This document shows, piece after piece, positions 552-56,421 of a DNA stretch of 57,257 nucleotides. Position 1 is the stretch's first letter; each line of letters begins with the position of its first letter. The stretch is from contig CADBZY010000014.1 in assembly GCA_902799245.1 (NCBI GenBank), forward strand, positions 1 through 57,257. Reading direction: 5' to 3'. Source of the DNA: an uncultured Ruminococcus sp. GTDB taxonomy: Bacteria > Bacillota > Clostridia > Oscillospirales > Acutalibacteraceae. The notes under the pieces are model-generated. The model ran no database searches and was not told where the DNA came from. It worked only from the letters and a program-made list of their open reading frames with translations. The position numbers and the translations under genes are program-made.

Positions 552-1007
552 ATTTCACGGATTCAGGTTATATGAAATATTTTTCAATATCTGTGTAAAA
601 AACGCTTCTAAGTGAGGTAATAGTTGGAAGGCTTATTTGATAAGCGGCCAAGGGTCACAGCGGCGACCAGCTCCGCAACCTGATCAGCCTTGCAAAGGAA
701 TTGAAGTAATTTTTTAAACAACCAGCCGTCCGTGGGATGAAGTGCGATCATCATCTCACCGGCTGCGAAAAATACGGTAGTATTGATATCAAATGTCAAA
801 GGATAATAGCCGCAAAAGTCCAGTAATAGTGCGGTTTTCTGGCATCCGGCCAAACTTGGAATCGGGCTGGCAAAACGCTCTGCGGTAACTTATCCAAGGG
901 CAAATCCGATCAAAAAGTGTGAGAGTTGAGTTGCCGAGTTAGATGTTGGGTAGTTGTGGTTGTGAGATAAATGTCAGAATGGCAAATAGATATTATTTGG
1001 AGGAAGC
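552..1007. other. Gene-poor stretch after the IS element with a possible gene remnant
   Basis: I see no complete gene here. A short plus-strand frame at about 644-709 reads like a true C-terminus (KGHSGDQLRNLISLAKELK then a stop) but is closed by a stop immediately upstream, so at best it is the tail of a decayed gene. The opposite strand has an open frame of 81 codons (608-853) with no ribosome site or recognisable domain. Together with the transposase on the left and the fused pseudogene on the right, the stretch looks like insertion and deletion debris. Confidence 0.4.
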
Positions 1008-2836: not shown

Positions 2837-2897
2837 TATGCAGAATCATACAGCATGAAACCATACTCACACAGAAAACAGATAATGATTCCTACCA

Positions 2898-2938
2898 AAA
2901 CAGCCGGAGCATTTGAGCGCTCCGGCTGTTTGATTTTT
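2898..2938 (+). terminator. Intrinsic terminator after the DUF1295 gene
   Basis: The arms 2898-2910 and 2919-2931 form a 13-bp perfect GC-rich stem with an 8-base loop. A T-rich tract (TTTGATTTTTTC) follows. It ends the rightward transcript and separates it from the leftward permease gene. Confidence 0.88.
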
Positions 2939-2989
2939 TCGATAAAAATTACAATTTCCGTCATTGACTGGCATTATTCCGACCGGAAG

Positions 2990-42521: not shown

Positions 42522-45110
42522 CTATTCATTCCATAGTATCATAAGCCGTTCTTCGCCCATGTCATAATACAGTTTCATGCCGGCTTTTGACGCATCAAAG
42601 GCACCGATAATGCCCTTTAAATCCTCCGGAAGATTCGTGAGTGTCTCTGTCAGTTCCGGCAGACCTTTCAGAAGCCGGGGGTTCCATACAACCGTGCTTT
42701 TTCCCTCAAAAACGGCCGTGTAAAGTATGCCGGATTCAACAAGATCCTGAAAAATGTGGCTGCCATAGCTGAGTTCCGGAATGTAGCCTATACTGGACTC
42801 CGATACCTCCGCAATCACCGAAAATTCGCTGATATCCGAAAATCCGGACGGAACGCCCAATTCCGGCGAAGACGTGCAGATTCTGCCGGGCGTGAGCAGG
42901 ATCAAGCGCTTTCCCTTTCCTCTGAATTGCCAGTTGACGTCGGAGAGAACCTTCTTCACGTCATACTTTCTCTTGTAAGGCAGTCTGTAATATCTCACAG
43001 GATCGATATACACAATGCAGTCCACATCGAATTCTCTTGAAAATCCCATGGAGACGCCCTTTGTTTCAAGCAATATTCTGTCGGAAGGAATGTCTTCCGG
43101 AAATGCCACCCTGTCGCCGTCGGCGGTAAGCTGCAAAGGACGGCATTGCAGAAGGTCTATGACGTATTTCCCGTCAGGGGCAAAATTAATGGTATATTCC
43201 GTGTCTACCGGGTATTCGTAATGCTGCTGAATCAGTCCGAGGATTTCCCGCATATCATTCATTAGCGACTGATTGCCGGTCAGACCATCGCAAGTGACGA
43301 AAAGAATATCCCTGTCAATGCCCATGTCTCTGAACCGCGCTTCGGTTTCATAATTATGCGCAAGCAGCAGCCGATTAAGGTAAGTCGGGAGCTTCAGGGA
43401 TAATTTCATTGGGTCGAAACCCTCGACTTCTCCCTTTTCCAGACTGACCGCGTCCACAAGCCGCTGTGAATACTGCTGTCTGTCGGAAACAGAGGTATTG
43501 ATCACCCGCTTGGGATCATCGAGAGATACCATTCGCGGATAAGAGCCGGTTCTCCGGTCTACGGCGGCAGTGCCAAGTCCCATCACGAGTCTGAGCATTC
43601 CCGACTCCGGACGCACCGAATCCATTCTGTACGGACTGGTCGAATAACCCACTCCTGCCGCGCAGGGCATGAAGAAACCCTCATACCTTGAACCCGATAC
43701 TCTCTGCACCAGAATTGCCATCTGTTCATCGCGTTTGTCAAGTCCCCGGCGTTTTCTGTAGTCAAGCGCCGAAAGGCTCATCGTGCTGGCGTAGACGGTG
43801 CGCACCGCGTCCTCAAACTGTTTCAGACGTTCCTCCGGAGAACCGATGCTGCCGCAGAATACCGATTCATACTTCCCGGCAAAGGCGTTTCCGAAGCCGT
43901 CTTCCAATATCGAGCTGGAACGGACAATCACCGGATCACTGCCGTAATAATCGAGTATTCTGCGAAATTCGGCTTCTATCGCAGCAGGGAATTTTCCCTC
44001 CATGATCTTTTCTCTGAACTGATCCGCCAGCGTAAAGAATCCTTCCTCCGTCCTCTGTTTTATCCTCAAATCCCAGAAACCGTTGTCCACGATATAGGCG
44101 TAAAACACGTCGGACCCGATGTAATAGGAATCGTGCGGCTCAAAGCGTTCAAAAATATCGGGGCGGTGATTCTCCACGATCTTCCTCGCAAGGAGCATTC
44201 CGCAAGCCTTGCCGCCGATCATTCCCGTACCGACCATGCGGGAATGCACCTCAAAGTAATCCTCCGGTCTGAAATTCTGCTTGATAAGACTGCGCATACG
44301 CTCGTCTCGGGTGAGCATGATGTTGCACATTCTCGCACATTCATTGGTTACGTCCACGCCGTTTTCATAGAGCATCTTGGTTCTTACAAAAAAGCGTTCC
44401 CAGCTGTCGAGATTCTGATCGAGCGCTTTTCCGGCTTCTTTATTCATGAGTCCGTAAAAATGGCTGATCTCGGTTCCCTCGGAAAGAACAGTAAAGCTGT
44501 TGTCCTCCCTTCTCATGCGATAAGGTTGGAACATCGTCTGGGAATAACGGTTCCACACCTTCATCGGACGCACATAGAATGACTGCCCGTCATTGTCGTT
44601 TTCTTTATACACGTCAAGGAAAAGCTGCGTTGTATCCCTGATGGTCGCAATCGCGTCAAAGGAATGTCTGCCTCGGATAATAGGGAAATAGGCGACTGTA
44701 TCGAGAATAAACAGAAACGGACAGGTCAGGTGAAAGAAGTTGCCCATCATCAGATCGGTCGCCCACGCTTCTTCCAACTCTGACAGGCAGTCAAAGACAT
44801 AAAAAGCGTCGTAGCCCTCCCGTTCAATCAGATTGTGTATATTGACCGTGAAATTTTCAAAGCGGTGCGAAAGCTCTACGTGTTCGATTTTTAACCCTTG
44901 CCGTGGCGTGAGAATCGGCTCGTGTTCCGCAAAACGGATATAGATGAGATTTCTGCGGTCCGCTATTGCCTGCTGTGCGAACCGTTCCGCCACATATCGG
45001 AATTCATTGAGGGAGGGAACCTGCCAGACAACATTGTCCCCCAGCCGTATGTATTGCAAAGCCTCGTCCATCATCGGTATTCCGGAGCGTGTTTTCTCAA
45101 AAGCTGCCAT
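42522..45110 (-). CDS. PEP/pyruvate-binding (PPDK N-terminal, ATP-binding) protein with KaiC-like N-terminus
   Basis: The protein has 862 residues. The first 200 resemble the start of KaiC/RecA-like ATPases (SGIPMMDEALQYIRLGDNVV) but carry no GxxxxGK[ST] loop. Residues of about 300-660 form the ATP-grasp-like nucleotide-binding domain of pyruvate phosphate dikinase and PEP synthase: GGKACGMLLARKI, VIVRSSSILEDGFGNAFAGK, ILVQRVSGSRYEGFF, VMGLGTAAVDRRTGSYPR and, later, IDLLQCRPLQ. The central phosphohistidine domain and the PEP/pyruvate barrel are missing, so it cannot be a complete dikinase. GGAGG lies seven bases before the ATG. It heads the leftward operon with FUSC-HAD. Confidence 0.82.
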   Translation of the reverse strand: MAAFEKTRSGIPMMDEALQYIRLGDNVVWQVPSLNEFRYVAERFAQQAIADRRNLIYIRFAEHEPILTPRQGLKIEHVELSHRFENFTVNIHNLIEREGYDAFYVFDCLSELEEAWATDLMMGNFFHLTCPFLFILDTVAYFPIIRGRHSFDAIATIRDTTQLFLDVYKENDNDGQSFYVRPMKVWNRYSQTMFQPYRMRREDNSFTVLSEGTEISHFYGLMNKEAGKALDQNLDSWERFFVRTKMLYENGVDVTNECARMCNIMLTRDERMRSLIKQNFRPEDYFEVHSRMVGTGMIGGKACGMLLARKIVENHRPDIFERFEPHDSYYIGSDVFYAYIVDNGFWDLRIKQRTEEGFFTLADQFREKIMEGKFPAAIEAEFRRILDYYGSDPVIVRSSSILEDGFGNAFAGKYESVFCGSIGSPEERLKQFEDAVRTVYASTMSLSALDYRKRRGLDKRDEQMAILVQRVSGSRYEGFFMPCAAGVGYSTSPYRMDSVRPESGMLRLVMGLGTAAVDRRTGSYPRMVSLDDPKRVINTSVSDRQQYSQRLVDAVSLEKGEVEGFDPMKLSLKLPTYLNRLLLAHNYETEARFRDMGIDRDILFVTCDGLTGNQSLMNDMREILGLIQQHYEYPVDTEYTINFAPDGKYVIDLLQCRPLQLTADGDRVAFPEDIPSDRILLETKGVSMGFSREFDVDCIVYIDPVRYYRLPYKRKYDVKKVLSDVNWQFRGKGKRLILLTPGRICTSSPELGVPSGFSDISEFSVIAEVSESSIGYIPELSYGSHIFQDLVESGILYTAVFEGKSTVVWNPRLLKGLPELTETLTNLPEDLKGIIGAFDASKAGMKLYYDMGEERLMILWNE

Positions 45111-45143
45111 TGCGCATCCTCCATTCTTTATCTTTTCAAGTGC

Positions 45144-45178
45144 AAAAAGGCGCTCCCGTAAAATACGAGAACGCCTTT
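45144..45178 (-). promoter_or_regulatory. Attenuator-like terminator in the PPDK-like gene leader
   Basis: On the minus strand AAAGGCG-type arms (45146-45152 with 45172-45178) and an inner CGTA/TACG stem form a hairpin followed by five T. It lies between the predicted transcription start (about 45185) and the start codon at 45110, where a simple end-of-gene terminator has no purpose for this gene. Confidence 0.6.
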
Positions 45179-45191
45179 GTTCTTCCCCTTT

Positions 45192-45220
45192 ATTGTATAT
45201 CTTTTGTTTTCATTTGTCAA
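45192..45220 (-). promoter_or_regulatory. Promoter of the PPDK-like/FUSC-HAD operon
   Basis: The minus-strand consensus TTGACA (45215-45220), 17-base spacer and TACAAT (45192-45197). Confidence 0.8.
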
Positions 45221-45333: not shown

Positions 45334-45362
45334 TTGACATACGATAAGATTTGTGATATGAT
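45334..45362 (+). promoter_or_regulatory. Promoter of the ATP-grasp/TCA-branch operon
   Basis: TTGACA (45334-45339), 17-base spacer and TATGAT (45357-45362), 72 bases before the ATP-grasp start. Confidence 0.82.
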
Positions 45363-45374
45363 ACTGACAAGAAA

Positions 45375-45411
45375 CAAGGGCGTTTTTGCATCAGGTGCAA
45401 AAGCGCCCTTG
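45375..45411 (+). promoter_or_regulatory. Leader hairpin of the ATP-grasp operon
   Basis: AAGGGCG (45376-45382) pairs with CGCCCTT (45404-45410) and TTTTGCA with TGCAAAA above it, giving a 14-bp stem with a small bulge and a 5-base loop. It starts a few bases after the predicted transcript start and ends seven bases before the GGAGG site. There is no T run, so translation or mRNA stability is more likely affected than termination. Confidence 0.6.
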
Positions 45412-45433
45412 ACTTGTTAAGGAGGTAATGAGT

Positions 45434-46750
45434 ATGGATTCATTGATTAAAAATGCGGAAACCATCAACGGATTGCTGGCAAGATACGGCGTAAAATTCG
45501 GCATTTACAAAAACGGGGAATTCAAAGAGCAGCTTTTTCCGTTTGATCCGATTCCGAGAGTGATCGGCAGTAAGGAATTTTACTACCTTGCATCGGGGCT
45601 GCGTCAGCGGGTTGACGCCTTGAATTGCTTTTTGCAGGACATTTACGGCAAAAAGCAGATCGTCAGGGACGGCATTATTCCTGAGGAGCTTGTCTTTTCT
45701 GCCAAGGGATTTCTTGCCCCGTGTGACGGCGTATGTCCTCCCAAGGGCATATACAGCCATATTTCAGGCATTGATCTCGTTCAGTCAAAGGACAACAACT
45801 GGTACATTCTGGAAGACAACCTGCGTGTGCCGTCCGGTGCGTCCTATCCTATGATTGCCAGAGAATTGCAAAGACGGGGAGCACCCGAGGTATTTGCCAA
45901 TGCCGGAGTGGTGGACAACCGGAATTATGCCGATCTGCTGAAGGAAGTCATGGATCACGTCAACACAGGCGGCATTAACGTCATTCTTTCGCCCGGGCGG
46001 TACAACGCCGCTTTCTTTGAACATTCTTATCTGGCGGAAAAGACAGGCGCGGTACTCACAACAGGAAAGGATATTGTGTGTGAAAACGACTCGCTTTATT
46101 ACATAGACTACAACGGTAAAAAGCAAAGAGTCGGCGCTGTCTATCGACGTATTTCCGACGAATATCTCGATCCGATGACATTTTACGAGGACTCTGTCAT
46201 TGGCATTCCTCATATCTTTGAAGCGTACAAAAAAGGCAATGTCGCGCTGCTCAACGCGCCGGGAAACGGCGTGGCGGACGACAAGGGCATATATTATTTT
46301 GTGCCGAAGATGATCAAGTATTATCTCGGTGAAGATGCCGCGCTAATGAATGCGCCGACCTATCTTCCTTTCTATGAGGAGGATATGAAGTATGTGCTGG
46401 ACAACTTTGACAGTCTGGTCATCAAAGACGTGGCGGAAGCAGGCGGCTATGGCGTTGTGTTCGGCAGTTCGCTGACAACGGAAAAAAAGGCGGAGTTTAT
46501 CGCACTGCTGAAAAGTCAGCCGAGACGGTTCATTGCGCAGGAGGTCATTGACTTCTATGATCTCGATATTCTCGACGAAACCGGAGAGAGGGTTCCGCGA
46601 AAAGCCGATCTTCGCGCGTTTGTCCTGACCGGCAGCACAACAAAGGTATGGCCGAGCGGCCTTACGAGGTTTTCCAGAAATCCCGATTCATTTATTGTCA
46701 ATTCATCACAAGGCGGAGGTTTTAAAGATACATGGGTATTATCACGGTAG
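45434..46750 (+). CDS. Circularly permuted ATP-grasp ligase (COG2308)
   Basis: The ATG at 45434 is eight bases after AAGGAGG; an ATG two codons earlier is too close. The 438-residue product has the family segments KEFYYLASGLRQRVDALNCF, FSAKGFLAPCDGV, WYILEDNLRVPSGASYPM, FYEDSVIGIPHIFEAYKKGN and VIKDVAEAGGYGVVFG, the permuted ATP-grasp glycine loop. Proteins of this type occur with alpha-E and transglutaminase-like partners and are predicted, from comparative genomics, to join amino acids or peptides through amide bonds at the cost of ATP; no substrate is established. The stop overlaps the alpha-E start by 19 bases. Confidence 0.9.
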   Translation: MDSLIKNAETINGLLARYGVKFGIYKNGEFKEQLFPFDPIPRVIGSKEFYYLASGLRQRVDALNCFLQDIYGKKQIVRDGIIPEELVFSAKGFLAPCDGVCPPKGIYSHISGIDLVQSKDNNWYILEDNLRVPSGASYPMIARELQRRGAPEVFANAGVVDNRNYADLLKEVMDHVNTGGINVILSPGRYNAAFFEHSYLAEKTGAVLTTGKDIVCENDSLYYIDYNGKKQRVGAVYRRISDEYLDPMTFYEDSVIGIPHIFEAYKKGNVALLNAPGNGVADDKGIYYFVPKMIKYYLGEDAALMNAPTYLPFYEEDMKYVLDNFDSLVIKDVAEAGGYGVVFGSSLTTEKKAEFIALLKSQPRRFIAQEVIDFYDLDILDETGERVPRKADLRAFVLTGSTTKVWPSGLTRFSRNPDSFIVNSSQGGGFKDTWVLSR

Positions 46751-47400
46751 ACAAAAGCGATCATTTGTTCTGGCTTGGCAGGTACACCGAAAGGGTACAG
46801 ACCACACTCAGATACTATCTGAAAACAGCGGATTTGATGCTGGATCACGGCACAGACGATTACGCAGCTCTGTGCAGGAAAATCGGTATTCCGGATATTT
46901 ACGGATCAGGCGAAGCTTTCCGGAAAAAATATCCCTTTGATGCAAAAGACAGCAATTCCATCATCAGCAGTCTCAACAGAGCGTATGACAACGCCATTGT
47001 CATGCGCGACTATATCGGCACTGAAACAATGGCATACATTCAGTTGGCGATAGATGACGTCAAACACGCGGAGCAAAGCACCGCACAGATTGCCGATCTT
47101 ATGCTGGTGATCGATCATATTTACGCGTTCTGGGGCTGCGCCAACGACCTGATTGACGATGAAAAAATCCGCAACATCATGAAACTCGGCAAGGGAATGG
47201 AACGGCTTGATCTGTATCTCAGTCTTGGCGTTGCAAAGCACGAAATCAAGCGCGAATATAGCCGGACAAAGGGCTTTTTGAAAAAATCCTGTCTCCGATA
47301 TGACGAGCATATTCTCTACACGGTTGACAGTCTGCTTTCCGAACCGAAATTTGACCATGACAACGTGAAAAAGCTGCTGAGAAATCTGATTTCCAAGTGA
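46732..47400 (+). CDS. Alpha-E domain protein (COG2307), short form
   Basis: This all-helical protein begins with the diagnostic SDHLFWLGRYTERVQTTLRYY. It has 222 residues, whereas typical members have about 310, so roughly one helical segment is absent. Other conserved segments are NRAYDNAIVMRDYIGTETM and LMLVIDHIYAFWGCANDLID. Alpha-E proteins nearly always accompany COG2308 ATP-grasp ligases and are thought to be their partner, but have no proven activity. GGAGG lies 12 bases before the ATG. Its stop overlaps the next start (GTGA), showing tight translational coupling. Confidence 0.87.
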   Translation: MGIITVDKSDHLFWLGRYTERVQTTLRYYLKTADLMLDHGTDDYAALCRKIGIPDIYGSGEAFRKKYPFDAKDSNSIISSLNRAYDNAIVMRDYIGTETMAYIQLAIDDVKHAEQSTAQIADLMLVIDHIYAFWGCANDLIDDEKIRNIMKLGKGMERLDLYLSLGVAKHEIKREYSRTKGFLKKSCLRYDEHILYTVDSLLSEPKFDHDNVKKLLRNLISK

Positions 47401-48203
47401 ACGGAGTGGTTACGATCAAGCAATTACAATTTGAGTACAGGCTGACAGCCTCTTACAGTGCTGAAATAAGCAACCACAGCTTTACGGTAATGTTTGTGCC
47501 AAAGGATAGCAACCGTCAAAAAATCACTTCCCTTGCCATTGCCGTGAAGGAATGCCACCGGTATTATATGACAGTTGACAGCTTCGGCAACGAAAAAATC
47601 TATGGAAAAATCACCGTGCCGCATCGGACTTTTGACGTCAGCATCAGCGGTGTGGCACAGACCGGACTGGATATCTATGAAGAATACACCGAAGATTCCT
47701 TCAATGCGGTTTTGCTGAGGTCACAGACCGCGCTGACACAGCCCGGCGCAAAACTTAAGGAATATCACCGCTGTCTTCCTCTGGAAAAATGCGACAGCGA
47801 TTACGAAAAAGCCCTTTTTGTGATGAGGTCGCTGCCGCAATCCTTCCACTACCGAAAAGGCGTTACATCGGTACATGAAAAAGCCGAGGACGCGTTTGCG
47901 CTTGGCGCAGGTGTTTGTCAGGATTACGCTCACATCATGGCGTCACTGCTTCGCATGGAGGGGATTCCCGTCCGGTATGTAGTGGGAATGATTCCGGGAG
48001 AAGGTGCGTCTCATGCGTGGGTGGAGGCGCTCTGCCGGGGATATTGGTACGGATTTGATCCTGCCAACAACAAACTGGTAGACGAGGATTACATCAAGGT
48101 TTCATGCGGCAGGGATTCGGCGGATTGCTCCGTGATCCGAGGCAGCTTTTACGGCTGTGCCGGGCAGGAGCAATCCGAGCGGATCACCGTCAATGAAATA
48201 TGA
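47397..48203 (+). CDS. Transglutaminase-like cysteine peptidase (COG1305)
   Basis: The start is GTG at 47397, overlapping the previous stop by four bases. The first 140 residues form the beta-rich N-terminal domain of bacterial transglutaminase-like proteins. The catalytic domain follows with Cys in LGAGVCQDYAHIMASLLR, His in GEGASHAWVEAL and Asp in WYGFDPANNKLVDEDY, so the triad is complete. No signal peptide is visible, hence a cytoplasmic enzyme. With ATP-grasp and alpha-E genes this makes the recurrent three-gene module, in which the peptidase is expected to cleave or transfer an amide bond of the ligase product (inference). Confidence 0.9.
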   Translation: MNGVVTIKQLQFEYRLTASYSAEISNHSFTVMFVPKDSNRQKITSLAIAVKECHRYYMTVDSFGNEKIYGKITVPHRTFDVSISGVAQTGLDIYEEYTEDSFNAVLLRSQTALTQPGAKLKEYHRCLPLEKCDSDYEKALFVMRSLPQSFHYRKGVTSVHEKAEDAFALGAGVCQDYAHIMASLLRMEGIPVRYVVGMIPGEGASHAWVEALCRGYWYGFDPANNKLVDEDYIKVSCGRDSADCSVIRGSFYGCAGQEQSERITVNEI

Positions 48204-48224
48204 CGACAGAAGGAATGATACACA

Positions 48225-49154
48225 ATGGTTCAGACGATAGCGTCGGTCGGTCTTCCGATTGACGAAACGCTTAAAATACAAAAAAATCGCATTATACCCA
48301 AAAACGGGCTGAAAGGCGGCGAGAATCGCCTCAGCATTGTCACCGGTACGCACGGTGATGAGCTGGAGGGACAGTATGTCTGCTATGAGCTGCAAAGAAG
48401 AATCAGGGAAAGCTATGACTGTCTGACAGGCATCGTCGATATCTATCCGGCGCTCAATCCCCTCGGTGTGGATTCCATCACAAGGGGCATTCCCGGCTTT
48501 GATCTGGACATGAACCGTCTGTTTCCCGGATTGGAAAACGGTTCTATGCCGGAATATATCGCTTCGAGAATCATTCGTGATCTCAGCGGAAGTGCGGCGG
48601 TCATTGACATACACGCCAGCAATATTTTTCTCGAAGAAATACCGCAGGTGCGCATCAACGAGCTTTCACAGAAGGAACTGCTGCCGCTTGCCAGACTGCT
48701 GAATGTGGATTATATCTGGATTCATTCCTCCGCCACGGTGCTGGAATCCACACTCGCCTACTCCCTGAATGTGATCGGCACGCCAACCCTTGTGGTGGAA
48801 ATGGGCGTCGGCATGAGAATTACAAAGAAATACGGCGATCAATTGACAGACGGTATTTTCGTACTGATGAAAGAGCTTGGCATCTGGAACGGAGAGGTCA
48901 TTGAGCCTAAGAAACCCATCATCTCCGATGACGGTGAGGTGTCGTTTATCAATGCCGGAAAATCAGGAGTATTCGTACCCAATGTCGGACACTGGAAGGA
49001 CGTAAAAAAGGGCGATCACATCGGCGATATCCTGAACCCCCTGACAGGTGAGATCAGCGAAGAGATCAACGCGGAAACAGACGGCATTGTGTTTACGCTC
49101 AGGGAATATCCGATCGTGTCCGAAGGCTCGCTGATTGCGAGAATTTTGTCGTAG
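48225..49154 (+). CDS. AstE/AspA-type zinc deacylase (M14 family), catalytic residues intact
   Basis: The 309-residue protein belongs to the succinylglutamate desuccinylase/aspartoacylase group of M14 carboxypeptidases. Zinc ligands are His43 and Glu46 in GTHGDELEG and His130 in VIDIHAS, the substrate-binding arginine is in DMNRLFPG, and the general-base glutamate is Glu192 in VVEMG. The C-terminal beta barrel (VPNVGHWKDVKKGDHIGDI) is present. Such enzymes release an acyl group from an N-acyl amino acid such as succinylglutamate or acetylaspartate. It starts 21 bases after the peptidase gene. Confidence 0.9.
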   Translation: MVQTIASVGLPIDETLKIQKNRIIPKNGLKGGENRLSIVTGTHGDELEGQYVCYELQRRIRESYDCLTGIVDIYPALNPLGVDSITRGIPGFDLDMNRLFPGLENGSMPEYIASRIIRDLSGSAAVIDIHASNIFLEEIPQVRINELSQKELLPLARLLNVDYIWIHSSATVLESTLAYSLNVIGTPTLVVEMGVGMRITKKYGDQLTDGIFVLMKELGIWNGEVIEPKKPIISDDGEVSFINAGKSGVFVPNVGHWKDVKKGDHIGDILNPLTGEISEEINAETDGIVFTLREYPIVSEGSLIARILS

Positions 49155-49165
49155 GGAGGTGCAAC

Positions 49166-50104
49166 ATGGAAGAAAAAATACTGTTTGAGCTTGGCTCGGT
49201 TTACCGTGAAGCCATGCGCATTAAAGGATACACATTCGGCAGCGGAGAACATTCCGCCTGCATTGTCGGAGCGACACGCGGCAACGAGGTGCAGCAGGTC
49301 TATCTCTGCTCCCGGCTTGTCGATATTCTGGAACGGCTTGAGAAAAGGGGAAAGATCACCTGCGGCAAATCCATTCTGGTCGTTCCAAGCGTCAATTCCC
49401 ATTCCATGAATATCGGCAAACGCTTCTGGTCAACCGACAACACCGATATCAACAGAATGTTTCCGGGATACAGTCTGGGTGAAACGACACAGCGCATTGC
49501 CGACGGACTTTTCAAAAATGTAAACGATTATCAATTCGGCATACAGTTTGCCAGTTTCTATATGCAGGGGAGCTTTATTCCGCATGTGCGCATGATGAAA
49601 ACAGGCTTTGAGGACGTGGAACTCGCTAAGGATTTCGGCTTGCCGTATGTATTCCGGCGGAACGCCAGACCGTATGATACCACGACGCTCAATTACAATT
49701 GGCAGATATGGGAAACCAAGTCCTTTTCGGTTTATACCGACGCCACCGACACCATTAACACAGAGACGGCAGCCGAAGCGGTCAACGCAGTACTTTGCTT
49801 CCTTCACAAACAGGGCATTATCGAGTACAACTGTCACGAAGGGTACATTTCCCGCTTCATTGAAGGAAGTCAGCTTGTCAACGTAAAGACGGTAACGGCG
49901 GGATTCTTTGTACGTCATGCCAGAGTCAGTCAAAGGGTGAAACAAGGGGATATTCTGGCGGAAATCCTTGATCCGTATAACGGAAGGGTAATTGACCGTA
50001 TATTGTCGCCCGTGAACGGCATTGTTTTTTTCCATGCCGTTCAGCCGGTGATCTATGCGCATACCACCCTCTATCGGATCATTCCGTCAGACGATCTGAT
50101 ATGA
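49166..50104 (+). CDS. AstE/AspA-like paralogue that has lost its zinc and catalytic residues
   Basis: This 312-residue protein aligns along its whole length with the preceding deacylase, including DINRMFPGYSLGE and the C-terminal barrel (GFFVRHARVSQRVKQGDILA). The zinc His43 becomes Arg38 (GATRGNEVQ, codon CGC at 49277-49279), the zinc His130 becomes Phe128 (FGIQFAS), and the general-base Glu192 becomes Tyr190 (SFSVYTDAT). Only the Glu of the HxxE pair and the substrate arginine remain. The frame is intact with a good GGGAGG site, so this is a conserved pseudoenzyme and not a decaying gene. It may be a regulatory or scaffold partner of the active copy (inference). Confidence 0.85.
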   Translation: MEEKILFELGSVYREAMRIKGYTFGSGEHSACIVGATRGNEVQQVYLCSRLVDILERLEKRGKITCGKSILVVPSVNSHSMNIGKRFWSTDNTDINRMFPGYSLGETTQRIADGLFKNVNDYQFGIQFASFYMQGSFIPHVRMMKTGFEDVELAKDFGLPYVFRRNARPYDTTTLNYNWQIWETKSFSVYTDATDTINTETAAEAVNAVLCFLHKQGIIEYNCHEGYISRFIEGSQLVNVKTVTAGFFVRHARVSQRVKQGDILAEILDPYNGRVIDRILSPVNGIVFFHAVQPVIYAHTTLYRIIPSDDLI

Positions 50105-50120
50105 GGGAGGAAAAGTCTGT

Positions 50121-51461
50121 ATGAGCAGCTTCAAAGAAACCATGTATGCGGCATTTACCGAGAATAATATCATTTCACCCGAATACTTCGACAAGTACAG
50201 TGTGAAACGGGGACTGCGCAATCCGGACGGAACGGGCGTGATGGCAGGCGTTACCAATATCTGCAATGTTCACGGTTACGTGATTGACGACGGCGAAAAG
50301 AAGCCGGCTGAGGGCAAGCTGATATTCAGAGGGTATAATATCCGTGACATCATCCGTCATGTGGAAGAGGAAGACCGCTTTGGCTTTGAGGAGATCGTAT
50401 ATCTTCTGCTGACGGGCAAACTTCCGACATTGGATGAGCTTACGGAGTTTACACAGCTTTTGTCCGATCATCGTGCTTTGCCTGATAATTTTTTCGAGGA
50501 TATGATCCTGAAAGCACCGTCACGGGATATTATGAATAAAATGGCAAGATCGACGCTCGCGTTATATTCCTATGACAGCAATCCGGAAACTTTATCGCCG
50601 GAGCATGAAATAGACACCGCCATATCGCTTATCGCAAGAATGCCGGTGATTATGATCTGTGCCTATGAAACACAAAGACGGTATTTCAGTGAGGACTCTA
50701 TGATCATGCACCCTTTAATAAAGGGGCAGTCAACAGCGGAAAACATTTTGTCAACGCTGCGACCAGACAGAAATTTTACCCATGAAGAGGCCAGACTCCT
50801 TGACCTGATGCTGATGCTTCACGCGGAACACGGCGGCGGTAATAACTCGACCTTTTCCTGCCGTGTGCTCACTTCATCGGGTACAGAGCCCTATTCCACC
50901 TATGCGGCAGCCATCGGTTCGCTGAAAGGCGCAAGGCACGGCGGCGCCAACCGTAAGGTGACAGAAATGCACGAATATATCAAGGCAAATGTGGCTGATT
51001 GGGAAAATGAAGAGGAGCTTGCGGCGTATCTGCGAAAAATTCTGCGAAAGGAAGCAGGCGACGGAAGCGGTCTGATCTACGGAATGGGGCATGCGGTCTA
51101 TACGTTGTCCGATCCCCGTGCAGTGATTCTGAAAGAGTATGCCGGCGCTATGGCGGAGGGAACCGACTTTGAAAAGGAGTTTCATCTGCTGGAATCCATC
51201 GAACGGCTGACGCCGAAAATTTTTGAAGAAGTAAAACATTCAGGAAAAGCCATGTGCGCCAATATTGATATGTACAGCGGATTTGTGTACAGAATGCTCG
51301 GTATTCCACAGGAACTCTTTACGCCGCTGTTTGCTGTTTCAAGAATGGCGGGGTGGTGCGCACACCGATTTGAAGAGATGAATAGCGGCAGGAGGATTAT
51401 TCGCCCCGCCTACAAATCCATCTCCCATGAAAAGGAATATGTGGATTTGAAAAACAGATGA
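50121..51461 (+). CDS. gltA: Citrate synthase
   Basis: The 446-residue enzyme condenses acetyl-CoA and oxaloacetate to citrate. The active-site segments are AEHGGGNNSTF (first His), GARHGGANRKV, YGMGHAVYTLSDPRA (second His) and the aspartate loop NIDMYSGFVYRMLGIPQ. Its length and the N-terminal extension resemble Clostridia citrate synthases. GGGAGG precedes the ATG at 50121. It follows the deacylase pair by 16 bases and the next gene starts 42 bases later, all in one strand. Confidence 0.95.
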   Translation: MSSFKETMYAAFTENNIISPEYFDKYSVKRGLRNPDGTGVMAGVTNICNVHGYVIDDGEKKPAEGKLIFRGYNIRDIIRHVEEEDRFGFEEIVYLLLTGKLPTLDELTEFTQLLSDHRALPDNFFEDMILKAPSRDIMNKMARSTLALYSYDSNPETLSPEHEIDTAISLIARMPVIMICAYETQRRYFSEDSMIMHPLIKGQSTAENILSTLRPDRNFTHEEARLLDLMLMLHAEHGGGNNSTFSCRVLTSSGTEPYSTYAAAIGSLKGARHGGANRKVTEMHEYIKANVADWENEEELAAYLRKILRKEAGDGSGLIYGMGHAVYTLSDPRAVILKEYAGAMAEGTDFEKEFHLLESIERLTPKIFEEVKHSGKAMCANIDMYSGFVYRMLGIPQELFTPLFAVSRMAGWCAHRFEEMNSGRRIIRPAYKSISHEKEYVDLKNR

Positions 51462-51503
51462 GCTATGGGAACGATAAAAAGACATAAAGAAAGGCTGATT
51501 ACG

Positions 51504-52721
51504 ATGGAAAAAATCAAAATGACTACCCCCTTGGTTGAAATGGACGGGGACGAAATGACAAGGATCATCTGGCAGATGATAAAGGAAAAACTCCTTCTTC
51601 CCTTCATTGACCTGAAAACCGAGTATTACGATCTCGGTCTTGCGCACAGAAACGAAACAGACGATAAAGTAACCGTCGAATCGGCGGAAGCAACCAAGAA
51701 GTACGGTGTGGCGGTCAAGTGTGCCACCATCACGCCCAATGCGGCAAGAATGACGGAATATGACCTCAAAGAGATGTGGAAATCACCCAACGGCACCATC
51801 AGAGCCATTCTGGACGGTACGGTGTTCCGTGCGCCGATCATTGTGGAGGGTATCACCCCTTATATTCCCACATGGACAAAGCCTATCACGATTGCCCGTC
51901 ACGCTTACGGCGATGTGTATAAGAACACCGAACTACGTGTCAGTCAGGGCAGCAAGGCAGAACTGAAAGTGACCGATCAAGACGGACATGAAACATCGGC
52001 GCTTATCTACGATTTTGAGGACAGCGCGGGAATCATTCAGGGACTTCATAATAAAGACAAGTCTATCGAGGGATTTGCCCGTTCCTGTTTTAATTATGCG
52101 CTTGATACGAAACAGGATATATGGTTTGCCTCCAAAGACACCATCTCGAAACAATATGACCACAGATTCAAGGATATCTTTGCGGAGGTCTTTGAAAATG
52201 ACTATCGGGCAAAATTTGAGGAAGCCGGAATAGAGTATTTTTATACGCTGATTGATGACGCGGTTGCGAGAGTGATTCGTTCCGAAGGCGGATATATATG
52301 GGCCTGTAAAAACTATGACGGCGATGTGATGTCAGACATGGTAGCCACCGCATACGGCAGTCTTGCGATGATGACTTCCGTACTGGTTTCTCCTGACGGC
52401 ATTTATGAATATGAAGCGGCGCACGGAACGGTACAGCGCCATTATTACAAATATTGCAAGGGTGAAAAGACCTCCACGAATCCTGTTGCCACGATTTATG
52501 CGTGGACAGGCGCATTGCGAAAAAGGGGAGAACTGGACAGTCTGCCTGCACTTTGCGGCTTTGCCGACAAACTGGAAAAAGCGGTTCTTGCCACAATCAG
52601 TGACGGAATCATGACCGGAGATCTTGCGGCCATCTCTACACTGTCAAACAAGCAGACCGCTGACACGGAAACATTTCTTGATGAGATAGGCATTCGTTTA
52701 GAGCGTTTATTGCATCAATGA
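51504..52721 (+). CDS. icd: NADP-type isocitrate dehydrogenase (homodimeric, eukaryote-like)
   Basis: The start at 51504 follows AGAAAGG by eight bases; an earlier in-frame ATG at 51465 has no site. The 405-residue enzyme belongs to the group II type shared with mitochondrial [15 protein letters not shown] at the N-terminus, [23 protein letters not shown], the metal-binding aspartates in YTLIDDAVA and [12 protein letters not shown], and [14 protein letters not shown] near the end. It converts isocitrate to 2-oxoglutarate, the glutamate precursor, making NADPH. Confidence 0.95.
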
Positions 52722-52737
52722 TGGAGGGAAATATCAT

Positions 52738-54693
52738 ATGGGACTGACATTGACCGAAAAAATACTCAAAAACCATCTGGTTGACGGTGAGTTCATCAAA
52801 GGCAGCGAGATCGGAATAAAAATCGATCAGACGCTCACGCAGGACGCCACAGGTACAATGGCTTATCTGGAATTTGAAGCGATAGGCATACCAAGGGTAA
52901 AGACAGAACGCTCGGTTGCCTACATTGACCACAACACACTGCAAAACGGTTTTGAAAATGCGGACGACCATCGTTTTATCGGTTCTGTCGCAAAAAAGCA
53001 TGGTATCTGTTTTTCCCGACCCGGCAACGGTATCTGTCATCAGGTGCATCTGGAACGCTTCGGTATTCCGGGAAAAACGCTGATCGGCTCGGACAGTCAT
53101 ACGCCGACCGGCGGCGGTATCGGAATGATTGCCATCGGTGCGGGCGGTCTTGACGTTGCGGTCGCAATGGGCGGCGGCGCTTACTACATCACATACCCGA
53201 AAATCGTCAGGGTCACTCTTACCGGCAAGCTCTCTCCGTGGGTGGCTGCGAAAGACGTGATCTTGGAGGTACTCAAACGAATGACCGTAAAAGGCAGCGT
53301 GGGTAAAGTCATTGAATACGGCGGCGAGGGTGTGAAAACGCTTACGGTTCCCGAAAGAGCCACTATCACCAATATGGGGGCAGAGCTTGGCGCCACTACA
53401 TCTATTTTCCCCTCTGACGACGTAACGCTTGCCTTTCTCAAAGCGCAGAACAGGGCAGAGGTATGGACGGAATTGAAAGCAGACGACGACGCGGTTTATG
53501 ATGAAGAAATCCATATTGATCTTTCCTCTGTCGTGCCTATGGCGGCTTGTCCTCATTCTCCGGATAACGTGAAGACCGTTGCGGAGATAGGCAGACTCAA
53601 AATAGATCAGGTATGTATCGGCTCCTGTACCAACTCCAGCTTTATTGATATGATGAAGGTTGCCACTATCCTCAGAGGCAGGACGGTTCATCCGAGCGTT
53701 TCACTCAGCATAGCTCCCGGCTCTAAGCAAGTGCTCAATATGCTGGCGTCCAACGGCGCACTGGCTGATATGATAGACGCAGGTGCAAGAATACTGGAAT
53801 CTGCCTGCGGCCCGTGTATCGGTATGGGACAATCGCCCAACTCCGGCGGAGTATCATTGCGTACTTTTAACCGTAACTTTGAAGGAAGATCAGGAACAAA
53901 GGACGGACAGATCTATCTCGTTTCTCCCGAAATGGCAGCCATTTCCGCCATAAAAGGGTACCTCACCGATCCAAGAGAATTGGGAAATATGCCGGAATTC
54001 CATCTGCCTCATCAGTTTAAGATAAATGACAACATGGTGGAACCGCCTGCCGATGAAAAGGATATGGACGGAATAGAGATTCTCAGAGGGCCGAACATTC
54101 AACCGTATCCTGTAACCTCACCGCTGCTTGATAACATAGCGTGCAAAGTATCTTTGAAGGTTGGCGATAATATCACCACAGACCACATCATGCCCGCCGG
54201 GGCCAAAATCCTTCCGCTCCGTTCCAATATCCCTGCTATCTCCATGCATTGTTTTACCGTATGTGATGAAGATTTTCCAAAAAGAGCAAAGCAGCTTGGT
54301 ATTTCCATTATCGTTGGCGGTTCCAATTACGGACAAGGTTCATCAAGAGAACACGCCGCACTCGCACCGCTGTATTTAGGGATAAAGGCGGTTGTTGTCA
54401 AGAGCTTTGCACGCATCCACAGAGCCAATCTGATCAATGCCGGTATTCTGCCTCTTACCTTCGTCAACGAGGCGGATTATGACAGAATCGGGCAGGGTGA
54501 CGACGTTGTTCTTGAAAATCTCCGCGCAGATATCGAATCAGGCAAGTCAGAACTTACGCTTATCAACAGAAGCAATGGCGAAGAAATACCTGTCTTTTGC
54601 GAACTGACAGGCAGAACAAGGAATATTATCCTTGCAGGCGGTCTGCTTGACTATACAAGATTGAGTCTCATTTCTGATGCGGGTAAGAATTGA
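52738..54693 (+). CDS. acn: Aconitate hydratase
   Basis: The 651-residue protein is of the short aconitase type shared by many anaerobes. Catalytic and cluster residues are visible: GSDSHTPTGGG (about 120), the iron-sulfur cysteines in IGSCTNSS and SACGPCIGMGQS, and the swivel domain with GSNYGQGSSREHAAL. It interconverts citrate and isocitrate, so it supplies the dehydrogenase encoded just before it. GGAGGG precedes the ATG, and its stop overlaps the next start (ATGATGA). This completes the oxidative branch to 2-oxoglutarate within three consecutive genes. Confidence 0.95.
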   Translation: MGLTLTEKILKNHLVDGEFIKGSEIGIKIDQTLTQDATGTMAYLEFEAIGIPRVKTERSVAYIDHNTLQNGFENADDHRFIGSVAKKHGICFSRPGNGICHQVHLERFGIPGKTLIGSDSHTPTGGGIGMIAIGAGGLDVAVAMGGGAYYITYPKIVRVTLTGKLSPWVAAKDVILEVLKRMTVKGSVGKVIEYGGEGVKTLTVPERATITNMGAELGATTSIFPSDDVTLAFLKAQNRAEVWTELKADDDAVYDEEIHIDLSSVVPMAACPHSPDNVKTVAEIGRLKIDQVCIGSCTNSSFIDMMKVATILRGRTVHPSVSLSIAPGSKQVLNMLASNGALADMIDAGARILESACGPCIGMGQSPNSGGVSLRTFNRNFEGRSGTKDGQIYLVSPEMAAISAIKGYLTDPRELGNMPEFHLPHQFKINDNMVEPPADEKDMDGIEILRGPNIQPYPVTSPLLDNIACKVSLKVGDNITTDHIMPAGAKILPLRSNIPAISMHCFTVCDEDFPKRAKQLGISIIVGGSNYGQGSSREHAALAPLYLGIKAVVVKSFARIHRANLINAGILPLTFVNEADYDRIGQGDDVVLENLRADIESGKSELTLINRSNGEEIPVFCELTGRTRNIILAGGLLDYTRLSLISDAGKN

Positions 54694-55679
54694 TGATTTC
54701 GCTCAATCAATATTTATTCTCCGGAGATACCGTGCTGAAAATTCTTCATCAGTATTCCGCCGATCTGAAAAAGTCAGCCATCCATGCGCATCATCCGATT
54801 GATCTGGCGCACAGTAATTTTCTGATACAGATCATAGAACTGCTGGAGCATAACGATTTTCTGTCCTTACAATCGCAGCGGATCAAGGAATTTTACAAGT
54901 ACATGACACATGAATACCCGTTTCTTGCGTTTACCTTCAAGGGAAGAATCAAATCTCTGATTCGCGCGGAGGAAAAATTCAACGGATATGTCTTAGAATA
55001 TATTTACGAGTATTACAAGACAAACGGAAGATTCCCAAGTGAAGCGGAAATCAAAAGCAATCTGATTTTCAGAGATTTGATTGCGTACCGCATTGTGATT
55101 TCACTGCCGCGATGTCATATTGCAGTGGGAGAAAGCGGTCACGAACAGGAATTGATTTATCTATATGAGATTGCCGATACGCTTCCCGAATTTCTCGAAG
55201 AAAGAGGATTTACAGCGGAATTGTCAGGCTTTCCCGATAAAACCGTATCAGAGCGGCTTTCTGAAAACAATCGTGGCTATTACAGAGATTATGTCGCGGA
55301 ACCCAGACCTTCCGGCTACCAGTCTCTTCATATCACTTTTTATGACAATCATGCAAGGTGCTTTACAGAGGTTCAGCTCCGGACAAAAGAAATGGACGAT
55401 CTTGCCGAGATCGGTGAAGCAAATCACTTCGGCTATGAAAAGCAACAGGAGGAAAGCCGTTCCAAACGGGATATTATCCCGAAAGGGCAATGTCTGTATT
55501 TTGATGAAGCGTATGAACGCCTGACCATGCTGCAGGGACTTGATCTCTCTACCGTAGATGTGAATATGTTCAAAGCATACAACAATCAGCTGATCAATGA
55601 CGGCTGCGGATTATTCAGAGGACGCCAGATACTCCCCTTCGAGCATTTGTCAAGATTTCAGAACGATCTCATTGATTGA
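54690..55679 (+). CDS. RelA/SpoT-type synthetase-domain protein coupled to aconitase
   Basis: The start overlaps the aconitase stop by four bases. The 329-residue protein has a helical N-terminal region of about 90 residues and a RelA/SpoT nucleotidyltransferase core: TFKGRIKSLIRAEEKFNGYV, RDLIAYRIVIS, EPRPSGYQSLHITFYD and the acidic catalytic segment FTEVQLRTKEMDDLAE. The usual Gly of the DxxGxR motif is Ala and the aromatic residue after the catalytic strand is missing, so substrate or activity may differ from classical (p)ppGpp synthetases. No hydrolase domain is present. It could make an alarmone in response to the state of the 2-oxoglutarate pathway (inference). Confidence 0.8.
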   Translation: MMISLNQYLFSGDTVLKILHQYSADLKKSAIHAHHPIDLAHSNFLIQIIELLEHNDFLSLQSQRIKEFYKYMTHEYPFLAFTFKGRIKSLIRAEEKFNGYVLEYIYEYYKTNGRFPSEAEIKSNLIFRDLIAYRIVISLPRCHIAVGESGHEQELIYLYEIADTLPEFLEERGFTAELSGFPDKTVSERLSENNRGYYRDYVAEPRPSGYQSLHITFYDNHARCFTEVQLRTKEMDDLAEIGEANHFGYEKQQEESRSKRDIIPKGQCLYFDEAYERLTMLQGLDLSTVDVNMFKAYNNQLINDGCGLFRGRQILPFEHLSRFQNDLID

Positions 55680-55713
55680 CTGTTTCCGAAATACAATATA
55701 AGGAGAAGCTGAA

Positions 55714-56421
55714 ATGAAACCATTAGTCGGATTAATGCCACTCTGGGATGATGAAAAGGAAAGCCTTTGGATGCTTCCCGGATATATGGATGGAATTGCA
55801 ACTGCCGGTGGGATTCCATTTATGCTGCCGCTGACCGACAGCGAGGAAGATATTAAGCAGCTTGTGGGAATCTGCAACGGATTTCTGTTCACAGGCGGTC
55901 ATGATGTATCGCCTGAGTTATATGCGGAAAAACCGATCGGCAATCTGGTTTCCTGTTGCAGAAAGCGGGACATTATGGAAAATATCGTGCTGAGAATCGC
56001 CATTGAGAAAGATAAACCGGTTTTGGGCATTTGTCGGGGGATTCAGTTCATCAACGCCGCACTTGGAGGTACGCTGTATCAGGACCTTCCGACACAACAT
56101 CCTACTGAAATAGAACATCATCAAAAACCGCCCTATGATCAACCGGTACACAAGGTTGATATTGTTCCGGGCAGTCCACTGTATTCTTTGATCGGAGAAT
56201 CAAGGATTGCAGTGAACAGCTATCATCACCAAGCAATCAAGCAGCTTGCTCCCTCTCTTGTTGCAATGGCATATTCAGAAGACGGTTTGGTAGAAGCTGT
56301 GCATAAACGGGATCAGTCTTTTATGTGGGCGGTGCAGTGGCATCCGGAATTCATGTGGATGACAGATGTAAACAGCAGAAAGATATTCAAAGCCTTTATT
56401 TCTATTTCAGCTATAGGATGA
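55714..56421 (+). CDS. C26-family gamma-glutamyl hydrolase (PuuD-like class I glutamine amidotransferase fold)
   Basis: The 235-residue protein has the C26 signature: GGHDVSPELY, the nucleophile Cys in LGICRGIQFINAALGG, and the His-Glu pair in VQWHPEFMW. Homologues hydrolyse gamma-glutamyl amide bonds, as in gamma-glutamyl-GABA. AAGGAG precedes the ATG. It is 34 bases after the alarmone-type gene and ends the operon. Its presence in a run that makes 2-oxoglutarate and contains an amide ligase suggests the product has gamma-glutamyl bonds (inference). Confidence 0.9.
   Translation: MKPLVGLMPLWDDEKESLWMLPGYMDGIATAGGIPFMLPLTDSEEDIKQLVGICNGFLFTGGHDVSPELYAEKPIGNLVSCCRKRDIMENIVLRIAIEKDKPVLGICRGIQFINAALGGTLYQDLPTQHPTEIEHHQKPPYDQPVHKVDIVPGSPLYSLIGESRIAVNSYHHQAIKQLAPSLVAMAYSEDGLVEAVHKRDQSFMWAVQWHPEFMWMTDVNSRKIFKAFISISAIG

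What the first reader, a model, noticed from the sequence alone, without database searches (positions are those of the whole stretch)
45434..56421. Ten-gene operon joining a peptide-ligase module, two deacylases, a complete 2-oxoglutarate branch, a RelA/SpoT enzyme and a gamma-glutamyl hydrolase
Seen: ten genes on one strand with gaps of 42 bases or less, four overlaps, and one promoter at 45334. Known: COG2308 ATP-grasp, alpha-E and transglutaminase-like genes recur together and are predicted to make an unknown amide-bonded product; citrate synthase, aconitase and ICDH supply 2-oxoglutarate for glutamate; AstE/AspA and C26 enzymes cleave acyl-amino acid or gamma-glutamyl amide bonds. Inference: the operon makes and recycles a glutamate-based peptide or acyl-amino acid, with the TCA genes as dedicated precursor supply and the RelA/SpoT protein as a sensor or signal. 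I know of no described system with this full set.
Basis: partly seen in the sequence, partly recalled or inferred. Interest (0 to 1): 0.92.

Follow-up and report, generated by a model that had tools for sequence, protein, structure and literature searches.

The report
Nitrogen-controlled amide-ligase operon, gut Clostridia
A five-gene enzyme set of unknown product, found in many gut and rumen bacteria, appears to be switched on together with the genes that capture ammonium, and in this rumen Ruminococcus it has been joined to extra enzymes that make the carbon skeleton for glutamate.

Summary
The ten-gene run is real: a conserved five-gene core plus additions. The core is CP-ATP-grasp, alpha-E, transglutaminase-like, an AstE-like deacylase and a second AstE-like protein that lost its zinc ligands. 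All five stand in this order in 63 of 67 loci with enough sequence upstream. The second 'deacylase' is a fixed pseudoenzyme (Arg for a zinc His in 83 of 83, Tyr/Phe for the catalytic Glu in 84 of 84). Citrate synthase, ICDH and aconitase are an added cassette (CS in 5 of 80 loci).

The divergent PPDK_N gene P0011 has it too. A covariance model found it genome-wide before glutamine synthetases, AmtB and amino-acid ABC operons. Its base can also form an ANTAR-P2-like mini-hairpin. So the module most likely belongs to a nitrogen-assimilation regulon, as its Anbu-containing cousins do in Pseudomonas and Burkholderia, by a different switch. The CS/ICDH genes then read as extra 2-oxoglutarate supply under nitrogen control. 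The product is unknown; a dedicated peptide pathway with a RelA/SpoT sensor is not shown, though RelA/SpoT-domain genes do recur beside the core.

The parts
45334..45362 (+). sigma-70-type promoter of the core operon (TTGACA-17-TATGAT)
45374..45417 (+). leader hairpin of the core operon, 12 nt after the -10; model R1 match; its 5' base (45374-45383) can alternatively form an ANTAR-P2-like mini-hairpin AC[AAGGGC]GT
   Evidence: (z -7.1)
45428..46750 (+). P0001 circularly permuted ATP-grasp (CP_ATPgrasp_1/2; solved relative 3n6x)
46732..47400 (+). P0002 alpha-E protein; confident all-helical model without a PDB fold match at E<=0.001
47397..48203 (+). P0003 transglutaminase-like protein, GTG start, Cys-His-Asp triad kept
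48225..49154 (+). P0004 AstE/AspA-type zinc amidohydrolase, zinc and catalytic residues intact
49166..50104 (+). P0005 AstE-fold paralogue without zinc His ligands (conserved Arg and Tyr at the key places)
50121..51461 (+). P0006 citrate synthase (PRK14032 type), one of three copies in this genome
51465..52721 (+). P0007 NADP isocitrate dehydrogenase (PRK08299 type), one of two full copies in this genome
52738..54693 (+). P0008 aconitate hydratase (PRK07229 type)
54690..55679 (+). P0009 RelA_SpoT synthetase-domain protein, no HD domain found
55714..56421 (+). P0010 Peptidase_C26 (PuuD-like gamma-glutamyl hydrolase family)
42522..45110 (-). P0011 divergent PPDK_N-domain protein (862 aa), predicted same regulon
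45139..45180 (-). leader hairpin of P0011, same family as that of the core
45192..45220 (-). promoter of P0011 (TTGACA-17-TACAAT)
41212..42510 (-). FUSC_2/ArAE_1 membrane domain fused to a HAD hydrolase; homologues within 10 kb of P0005 in 8 of 80 loci
   Evidence: Pfam read on the near-identical copy in L025

Best explanation
The operon is a nitrogen-limitation amide-metabolism module of gut Clostridia. Shown by sequence: a five-gene core (ATP-grasp amide-ligase family, alpha-E, Cys-His-Asp transglutaminase-like enzyme, AstE-like zinc amidohydrolase, AstE-like pseudoenzyme) whose leader begins with a hairpin of the same family as leaders of glutamine synthetases, AmtB and amino-acid ABC operons. 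Inferred: (1) when nitrogen is ample, transcription stops at the hairpin; when it is short, a nitrogen-signalled antiterminator, probably an ANTAR protein using the alternative mini-hairpin at the hairpin base, lets RNA polymerase through. (2) The ATP-grasp enzyme joins a carboxylate to an amine, and the transglutaminase-like enzyme and P0004 open amide bonds again. P0005 is a partner subunit or ligand sensor of P0004. Together they make and recycle an amide-linked nitrogen compound, perhaps glutamyl or aspartyl. (3) In this Ruminococcus lineage an extra citrate synthase-ICDH-aconitase set was placed behind the same leader, supplying 2-oxoglutarate as ammonium acceptor.
For: Core order: 63 of 67 loci. 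Catalytic residues kept in P0004 orthologues and lost in one fixed way in P0005 orthologues. Leader: 52 of 68 have a hairpin of 11 bp or more in 350 nt, 44 with a promoter-like site 0-45 nt before it; the same sequences hold 112 such pairs in all in 2.70 Mb (both strands), so about 0.6 expected. Fairer control, intergenic upstream regions of other genes in the same loci: 5 of 210, against 41 of 63 for P0001 in that test; three of the five are again this element (one P0011 piece, two reverse strands of core leaders). Model R1 on 60 sources (1.06 Mb): 75 matches at E<=1 fall on 50 places: 41 before P0001, 1 before P0002 (L091), 2 before P0011, 1 before CS, 1 before C26, 4 at amino-acid ABC operons, none elsewhere (the L076 ABC place by eye). 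24 of the 60 sources had supplied training hairpins; of 29 held-out sources with a P0001 start, 20 have a match. Genome-wide in 19 genomes, 44 matches = 38 places: 6 core, 4 P0011, 3 ABC, 5 GSIII, 2 GlnA, 1 AmtB, and 17 terminator-like without a promoter match. In G000 the hit on C3 precedes GSIII and AmtB/PII, divergent from glutamate synthase. An ANTAR gene follows the GlnA that carries the leader in G134; another lies 5.7 kb upstream of the core in L096. Independent published support: CP-ATP-grasp and proteasome-type (Anbu) genes up log2 3.99 and 4.44 on nitrate versus ammonium in P. putida (PMC8050072, passages); DUF404/407, DUF403 and transglutaminase genes NtrC-dependent in B. cenocepacia (PMC5491218, passages).
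Against: No expression data for this organism. No product or activity is shown. The known ANTAR target has two hairpins (PMC3369931, passages); no upstream P1 was found here, and only 9 of 44 leaders have even 17 nt between -10 and hairpin. No ANTAR gene was located in G000, where only about 35 kb beyond the window were searched for it. In this window the hairpin has a weak U-tract. 16 of 68 leaders lack a hairpin by the strict criterion, and 9 of 29 held-out sources have no model match. Of 13 P0005-bearing genomes searched, the core leader itself matched at E<=0.01 in only 6; G224 and G256 had no match at all, and in G009, G198, G299, G335 and G423 the matches lie elsewhere (in G423 before the ABC operon directly upstream of P0001). 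The model was built from hairpins chosen for long stems, so its stem pairing is partly circular. For the mini-hairpin, a version slid by -2 columns has as many cells changed on both sides (8 against 7), though it pairs and covaries less. In G440 the core hairpin has no promoter match before it and follows a P0009-like gene. P0010-like genes also occur in G042 and G043, a P0011-like gene in G043 and end pieces of it in G004 and G011, none of which has a P0001 match.
Confidence: 0.68

Rival explanations
1. One reading: one dedicated pathway of ten genes that makes and recycles a glutamate-based peptide or acyl-amino acid, with TCA genes as precursor supply and the RelA/SpoT protein as sensor.
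For: Ten genes in one run, kept in G003 and G013 and, up to a contig end, in G005. CS or CS-ICDH near the core also in L032, L033 and L092; C26 near the core in 8 of 80 loci. RelA_SpoT-domain genes beside the core recur: P0009-like in L058 and G440, another kind in L064 and L074.
Against: CS in 5 of 80, aconitase in 2 of 80, P0009 in 3 of 80 loci. Core without the other five in G009 and G044. G012 has only the ends of CS and aconitase left.
Confidence: 0.15
2. Protein tagging/turnover as proposed for the Anbu operon: the ATP-grasp enzyme attaches an amino acid or peptide to proteins, and the transglutaminase-like and AstE-like enzymes remove it, AstE taking the place of Anbu.
For: Same three partner genes as the Anbu operon (PMC5666114, PMC6376114, passages). 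No PF00227 match over the cut-off in 19 of 20 P0004/P0005-bearing genomes.
Against: Solved relatives of P0004 with a named substrate are DoeB (N-acetyl-diaminobutyrate) and CphZ (cyanophycin dipeptide), both small molecules. No tag peptide was seen among the ten genes; none was searched for elsewhere.
Confidence: 0.15
3. The leader hairpin is only a generic terminator or 5' stabiliser found at many strong promoters, and the TCA cassette a neutral neighbour.
For: 17 of 38 genome-wide model places are terminator-like sites without a promoter match and without a recognised nitrogen gene. P1 of ANTAR targets is missing.
Against: In 1.06 Mb no model match at E<=1 falls before an unrelated gene; other genes have the promoter-hairpin pair in 5 of 210, three of these being the same element. 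The 12 best genome-wide places (E<=2.2e-5) are all leaders of core, P0011 or ABC operons; the other promoter-bearing places inspected are GSIII, GlnA, AmtB and ABC.
Confidence: 0.12

Closest known systems
Anbu operon (CP-ATP-grasp, alpha-E, transglutaminase-like, Anbu) of Proteobacteria and others
   Same: First three gene families in close order; nitrogen-limitation induction reported in P. putida and NtrC dependence of these families in B. cenocepacia (passages).
   Different: PF00227 (Anbu/HslV) over the cut-off in 1 of 20 P0004/P0005-bearing genomes. An AstE-like enzyme plus a fixed AstE pseudoenzyme follow instead. Control by a leader hairpin rather than by NtrC.
AstE/AspA family (DoeB/EutE, CphZ)
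   Same: P0004 and P0005 belong to it by sequence, P0005 also by predicted fold; zinc and catalytic residues kept in P0004.
   Different: P0005 has Arg for one zinc His, Ala/Thr/Ser/Pro for the other, and Tyr/Phe for the catalytic Glu in every orthologue that could be read; the pair is encoded together.
ANTAR antitermination leaders (eut, nas, ami)
   Same: Nitrogen genes and a terminator-like hairpin whose base can form a mini-hairpin with a six-base loop, A in 30 of 37 at loop position 1 and G in 37 of 37 at position 4.
   Different: Only one mini-hairpin; the transcript seems to start a few bases before it, so P1 has no room in most leaders. Binding by an ANTAR protein untested.
Puu pathway (PuuD) and glutathionylspermidine synthase
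   Same: Ligase related to a chain named 'putative glutathionylspermidine synthase' (3n6x) and a C26 hydrolase related to PuuD: a ligate-then-hydrolyse logic.
   Different: C26 near the core in only 8 of 80 loci; no PuuA-, PuuB- or PuuC-like gene among the ten.

Membership tests
Anbu operon | CP-ATP-grasp, alpha-E and transglutaminase-like genes adjacent in this order | tested here: met
   63 of 67 loci with room
Anbu operon | Anbu (Ntn-hydrolase) gene present | tested here: not met
   PF00227 over cut-off in 1 of 20 P0004/P0005-bearing genomes, none in G000
AstE/AspA zinc amidohydrolases (P0004) | His-Glu-His zinc ligands and catalytic Glu | tested here: met
   80 of 80, 80 of 80, 81 of 81, 81 of 81 (one orthologue not readable at two positions; a few rows near-identical)
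AstE/AspA zinc amidohydrolases (P0005) | His-Glu-His zinc ligands and catalytic Glu | tested here: not met
   Arg in 83 of 83; Ala/Thr/Ser/Pro in 84 of 84; Tyr/Phe in 84 of 84; the ligand Glu alone is kept (83 of 83)
AstE/AspA zinc amidohydrolases (P0005) | overall fold | tested here: met
   pLDDT 88.7; DoeB 6twm E 2.7e-21
ANTAR target RNA | mini-hairpin with hexaloop A1/G4 overlapping a terminator base (P2) | tested here: inconclusive
   outer pair A-U 27, G-C 7, G-U 3 of 37; inner pair 36 of 37; A1 30 of 37, G4 37 of 37; but a slid control has 8 doubly changed cells against 7, and function is untested
ANTAR target RNA | second, upstream mini-hairpin P1 | tested here: not met
   only 9 of 44 promoter-hairpin leaders have 17 nt or more for it; none was identified
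ANTAR target RNA | ANTAR protein in the genome | tested here: inconclusive
   found in G134 and L096; not found in about 35 kb of G000 outside the window
Nitrogen-assimilation regulon | same cis element at glutamine synthetase and AmtB | tested here: met
   GSIII 5, GlnA 2, AmtB 1 of 38 places in 19 genomes
Nitrogen-assimilation regulon | induction on nitrogen limitation | not testable with these tools
   needs expression data
RelA/SpoT alarmone enzymes (P0009) | (p)ppGpp synthesis | tested here: inconclusive
   only residues 193-253 match Pfam and 195-252 match 1vj7; GYQSLH and EVQLRT stretches kept; activity unknown

The most novel reading that the evidence does not exclude
Gut Clostridia control nitrogen assimilation by a compact, single-hairpin, ANTAR-type antitermination leader. 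Its regulon includes a widespread amide-nitrogen storage or salvage pathway not described in the papers searched, run by an obligate pair of one active and one inactive AstE protein in place of Anbu. In rumen Ruminococcus the regulon has captured its own 2-oxoglutarate branch.
Probability: 0.4. Interest if true: 0.85.

Novelty: new variant of a known kind. Interest (0 to 1): 0.73.

Why it matters
The ATP-grasp/alpha-E/transglutaminase set is widespread, and the papers whose passages I read report no established function or product. The shared leader with glutamine synthetase and AmtB places the clostridial form in nitrogen control, matching induction data from Proteobacteria, although the switch differs. 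That tells where to look: nitrogen-limited cells, amide-linked nitrogen compounds. It also proposes a compact antitermination element for nitrogen genes in gut and rumen Clostridia, and names a conserved active/inactive enzyme pair that can be purified and tested at once.

Tried and rejected
Anbu elsewhere in the genome: no PF00227 match in G000. A known RNA family at the leader: nothing at gathering score in the window; relaxed hits at the leader are unrelated families, each far below its gathering score. tRNA in the window: none. Fold relatives of alpha-E: none at E<=0.001. A plain DNA operator instead of an RNA hairpin: the distance between the arms varies between species, so a fixed operator is less likely. 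A family fixed beside the core: none in more than 4 of 43 immediate downstream or 3 of 54 immediate upstream neighbours scanned. Literature: searches (and 76 for cyanophycin/CphZ) in the open-licence PMC library listed no paper that I recognised as treating an AstE-containing clostridial form or this leader. I read passages of eight papers, none in full. Iyer et al. 2009 (PMC3268129) is not held, so the claim covers only that library and those terms.

Rows dropped before counts: L009, L010 and L016 (same contigs as L025/L026 or near-identical to the window), and loci with under 150 nt upstream; window, L025 and L027 are near-identical yet counted apart. In one search the 67-locus denominator leaves out 13 of 80 loci with under 4200 nt upstream. 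In some searches, L025, L026, L027 and L033 were left out. One search covered 60 sources, not all loci held. The ORFs after the 17 terminator-like places were judged from their first residues, not scanned.


Full report
1. What is there. Its closest named relative in the scan is a rumen Ruminococcus MAG contig (L025, RUG10784, 99% over P0005). A strong promoter-like site lies at 45334. The promoter scan as a whole is only somewhat above its shuffles (26 against 19.5, sd 3.9), so the site rests on its quality and position.

2. A core and additions. Neighbouring genomes G003 and G013 keep all ten genes at 98-100% identity, and G005 does so up to a contig end. G012 keeps genes 1-5 and 9, with only the two ends of CS and aconitase left; its contig ends before gene 10. 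G009 (same genus) and G044 (another family) keep genes 1-5 without the other five beside them. P0001 and P0005 occur in the same 7 of 60 genomes, the own genome included. In the class, 14 of 390 other genomes have P0005 at E<1e-100, and all 14 have a P0004-like match next to it; 7 further matches are weak. Among the best 80 of 541 confirmed loci in named genomes, 67 of 80 show all five genes in order, including 63 of the 67 that have at least 4200 nt upstream. The four exceptions with room are L070, L073 and the two Treponema loci L086 and L091, where the core is broken up. Many of the 80 records are named Lachnospiraceae, Ruminococcus or Clostridia from gut and rumen samples.

3. The additions. 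In the flanks of up to 10 kb of the 80 loci: CS 5, ICDH 4, aconitase 2, P0009 3, C26 8 (one on the other strand at 36%), P0011 6, FUSC-HAD 8. L025 and L027 are close kin of the window, and L032 and L033 of each other, so these are fewer independent cases. L032 and L033 carry the same partners as the window (FUSC-HAD, CS, ICDH, C26, P0011) in a different arrangement, which speaks for a functional bond. Apart from the window's own lineage, CS genes beside the core resemble the window's at 66-78%; unlinked CS genes in the 60 relatives reach at most 61%. The own genome has three CS and two full ICDH copies, with a CS-ICDH pair on C16; that pair gave no leader-model match at E<=0.01. Aconitase copies were not counted. 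A P0009-like gene (62-64% over the part held) also precedes P0001 in G440, and an unrelated RelA_SpoT-domain gene precedes it in L064 and L074, so an alarmone link recurs but is rare.

4. The enzyme pair. P0004 orthologues keep both zinc His, the zinc Glu and the catalytic Glu in all that could be read. P0005 orthologues have Arg in place of the first His in 83 of 83, Ala/Thr/Ser/Pro in place of the second in 84 of 84, and Tyr or Phe in place of the catalytic Glu in 84 of 84, while other residues (Asn176, Asn178, Trp179) are invariant. The AlphaFold model of P0005 (pLDDT 88.7) has the AstE/AspA fold, nearest DoeB, with CphZ among the best. It is thus a maintained pseudoenzyme or an enzyme with a new site. 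Alpha-E gives a confident helical model (pLDDT 91.5) without a PDB match at E<=0.001. The transglutaminase-like triad is kept.

5. The leader. Directly after the core promoter lies a 17-pair hairpin (fold z -7.1; pairs). The divergent gene P0011 has one of the same type (z -3.2). The pattern AARGGCGTT-N5..25-AGCGCCYTT occurs exactly twice in the 3.03 Mb genome, at these two leaders, and twice in G003, likewise; once each in G013 and G012 (the P0011 leader); not in G009 and G044. Of 68 P0001 leaders, 52 have a hairpin of 11 bp or more within 350 nt and 44 have a promoter-like site 0-45 nt before it. All such pairs in the same sequences number 112 in 2.70 Mb (both strands), so about 0.6 would be expected in 68 leaders. 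In a fairer control, intergenic regions before 210 other genes of these loci have the pair in 5, against 41 of 63 for P0001 by the same script; three of the five are this element again. A covariance model from 37 hairpins gave 75 matches at E<=1 in 60 sources, which fall on 50 places: 41 before P0001, 1 before P0002 in L091, 2 before P0011, 1 before CS (L032), 1 before C26 (L094), and 4 at amino-acid ABC operons (L062, L067, L076, L097); none elsewhere (classified; L076 by eye). 24 of the 60 sources supplied training hairpins; of 29 held-out sources with a P0001 start, 20 have a match and 9 do not.

6. The regulon. In 19 genomes (13 with P0005, 6 without) the model gave 44 matches, or 38 places after removing reverse-strand repeats. 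I inspected the downstream genes of the places not already known as core or P0011 leaders. Result: core 6 (G000, G003, G012, G013, G134, G440), P0011 4, ABC operon 3, glutamine synthetase III 5, GlnA 2, AmtB 1; 17 places had no promoter match and no such gene recognised and look like ordinary terminators. Pfam confirms GSIII, GlnA, AmtB-PII and ANTAR for the proteins tested, and glutamate synthase beside GSIII in G000; the other GSIII and ABC genes rest on similarity to these. Of the 13 genomes with P0005, 7 gave no match at the core leader itself: G224 and G256 none at all; G009, G198, G299, G335 and G423 elsewhere. In G423 the match precedes the ABC operon that lies directly upstream of P0001. 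G008, without the core, also has the leader at GSIII, so the element belongs to nitrogen assimilation and the core joined it (inference). The promoter pattern failed for two leader-type sites (G134:C214 GSIII and G440:C12 core).

7. Mechanism. The hairpin is followed by a U-rich tail in many species, weakly so in this window. Its 5' base can also form a two-pair mini-hairpin with a six-base loop. The outer pair is A-U in 27, G-C in 7 and G-U in 3 of 37; the inner pair holds in 36 of 37. Loop position 1 is A in 30 of 37 (G in 7), and position 4 is G in 37 of 37. Its covariation exceeds all 500 shuffles, but one slid control has 8 doubly changed cells against 7. The 5' columns were not part of the choice of hairpins; their 3' partners and loop partly were. 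This is the feature ANTAR proteins read in P2 of their targets (PMC3369931, passages). The second hairpin P1 of those targets is missing here. I therefore propose, but have not shown, a one-hairpin ANTAR-type antitermination.

8. Fit with what is known. The CP-ATP-grasp, alpha-E and transglutaminase genes form the Anbu operon with a proteasome-like protein elsewhere (PMC5666114, PMC6376114, passages); those passages report no established substrate or confirmed role. In P. putida the ATP-grasp and proteasome genes rise with urtA and glnK on nitrate (PMC8050072, passages); in B. cenocepacia the three families depend on NtrC (PMC5491218, passages); in marine metagenomes they go with urea metabolism domains (PMC3597751, passages). 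The clostridial module lacks Anbu in 19 of 20 genomes tested, has the AstE pair instead, and is under a different, leader-based control. Nitrogen control of this module thus seems older than its local switch (inference).

9. What remains open. The product, the roles of alpha-E, P0005 and P0011, whether P0009 makes an alarmone, and any expression datum for this organism. The TCA genes as 2-oxoglutarate supply for ammonium capture are an inference from gene identity, extra copies and shared leader control. A peptide product is possible but not shown.

Noticed in passing
L026:10201-10534 (G012:C54): Only the first ~77 residues of CS and the last ~54 of aconitase remain between P0005 and P0009: a deletion relic (or assembly collapse) of the TCA cassette.
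   Followed up: partly
G012:C54:5539-6815: The ATP-grasp gene reads as two frames in this MAG (frameshift or error).
   Followed up: no
L086 and L091 (Treponema): The core also occurs in Treponema MAGs, broken up by 2-8 kb; in L091 alpha-E has its own leader hairpin match.
   Followed up: partly
L064:1444-2157, L074:5188-5901 and L205 (G440:C12): RelA_SpoT-domain genes sit directly upstream of the core: a different, short kind in L064 and L074, a P0009-like one (62-64%) in G440. An alarmone link may recur.
   Followed up: partly
L094:474, 3341, 4151: One locus carries the leader hairpin three times: before P0011, before C26 and before the ATP-grasp gene.
   Followed up: yes
window 41212-42510: FUSC/ArAE membrane domain fused to a HAD hydrolase, with homologues near the core in 8 of 80 loci; function not clear.
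   Followed up: partly
L206 (G000:C3:3392-13825): Nitrogen island: AmtB-PII fusion and GSIII divergent from glutamate synthase, with the leader hairpin before GSIII. Small ORFs beside it (846-3202) look by eye like ArsR/ArsD/ArsA (recalled, not scanned).
   Followed up: partly
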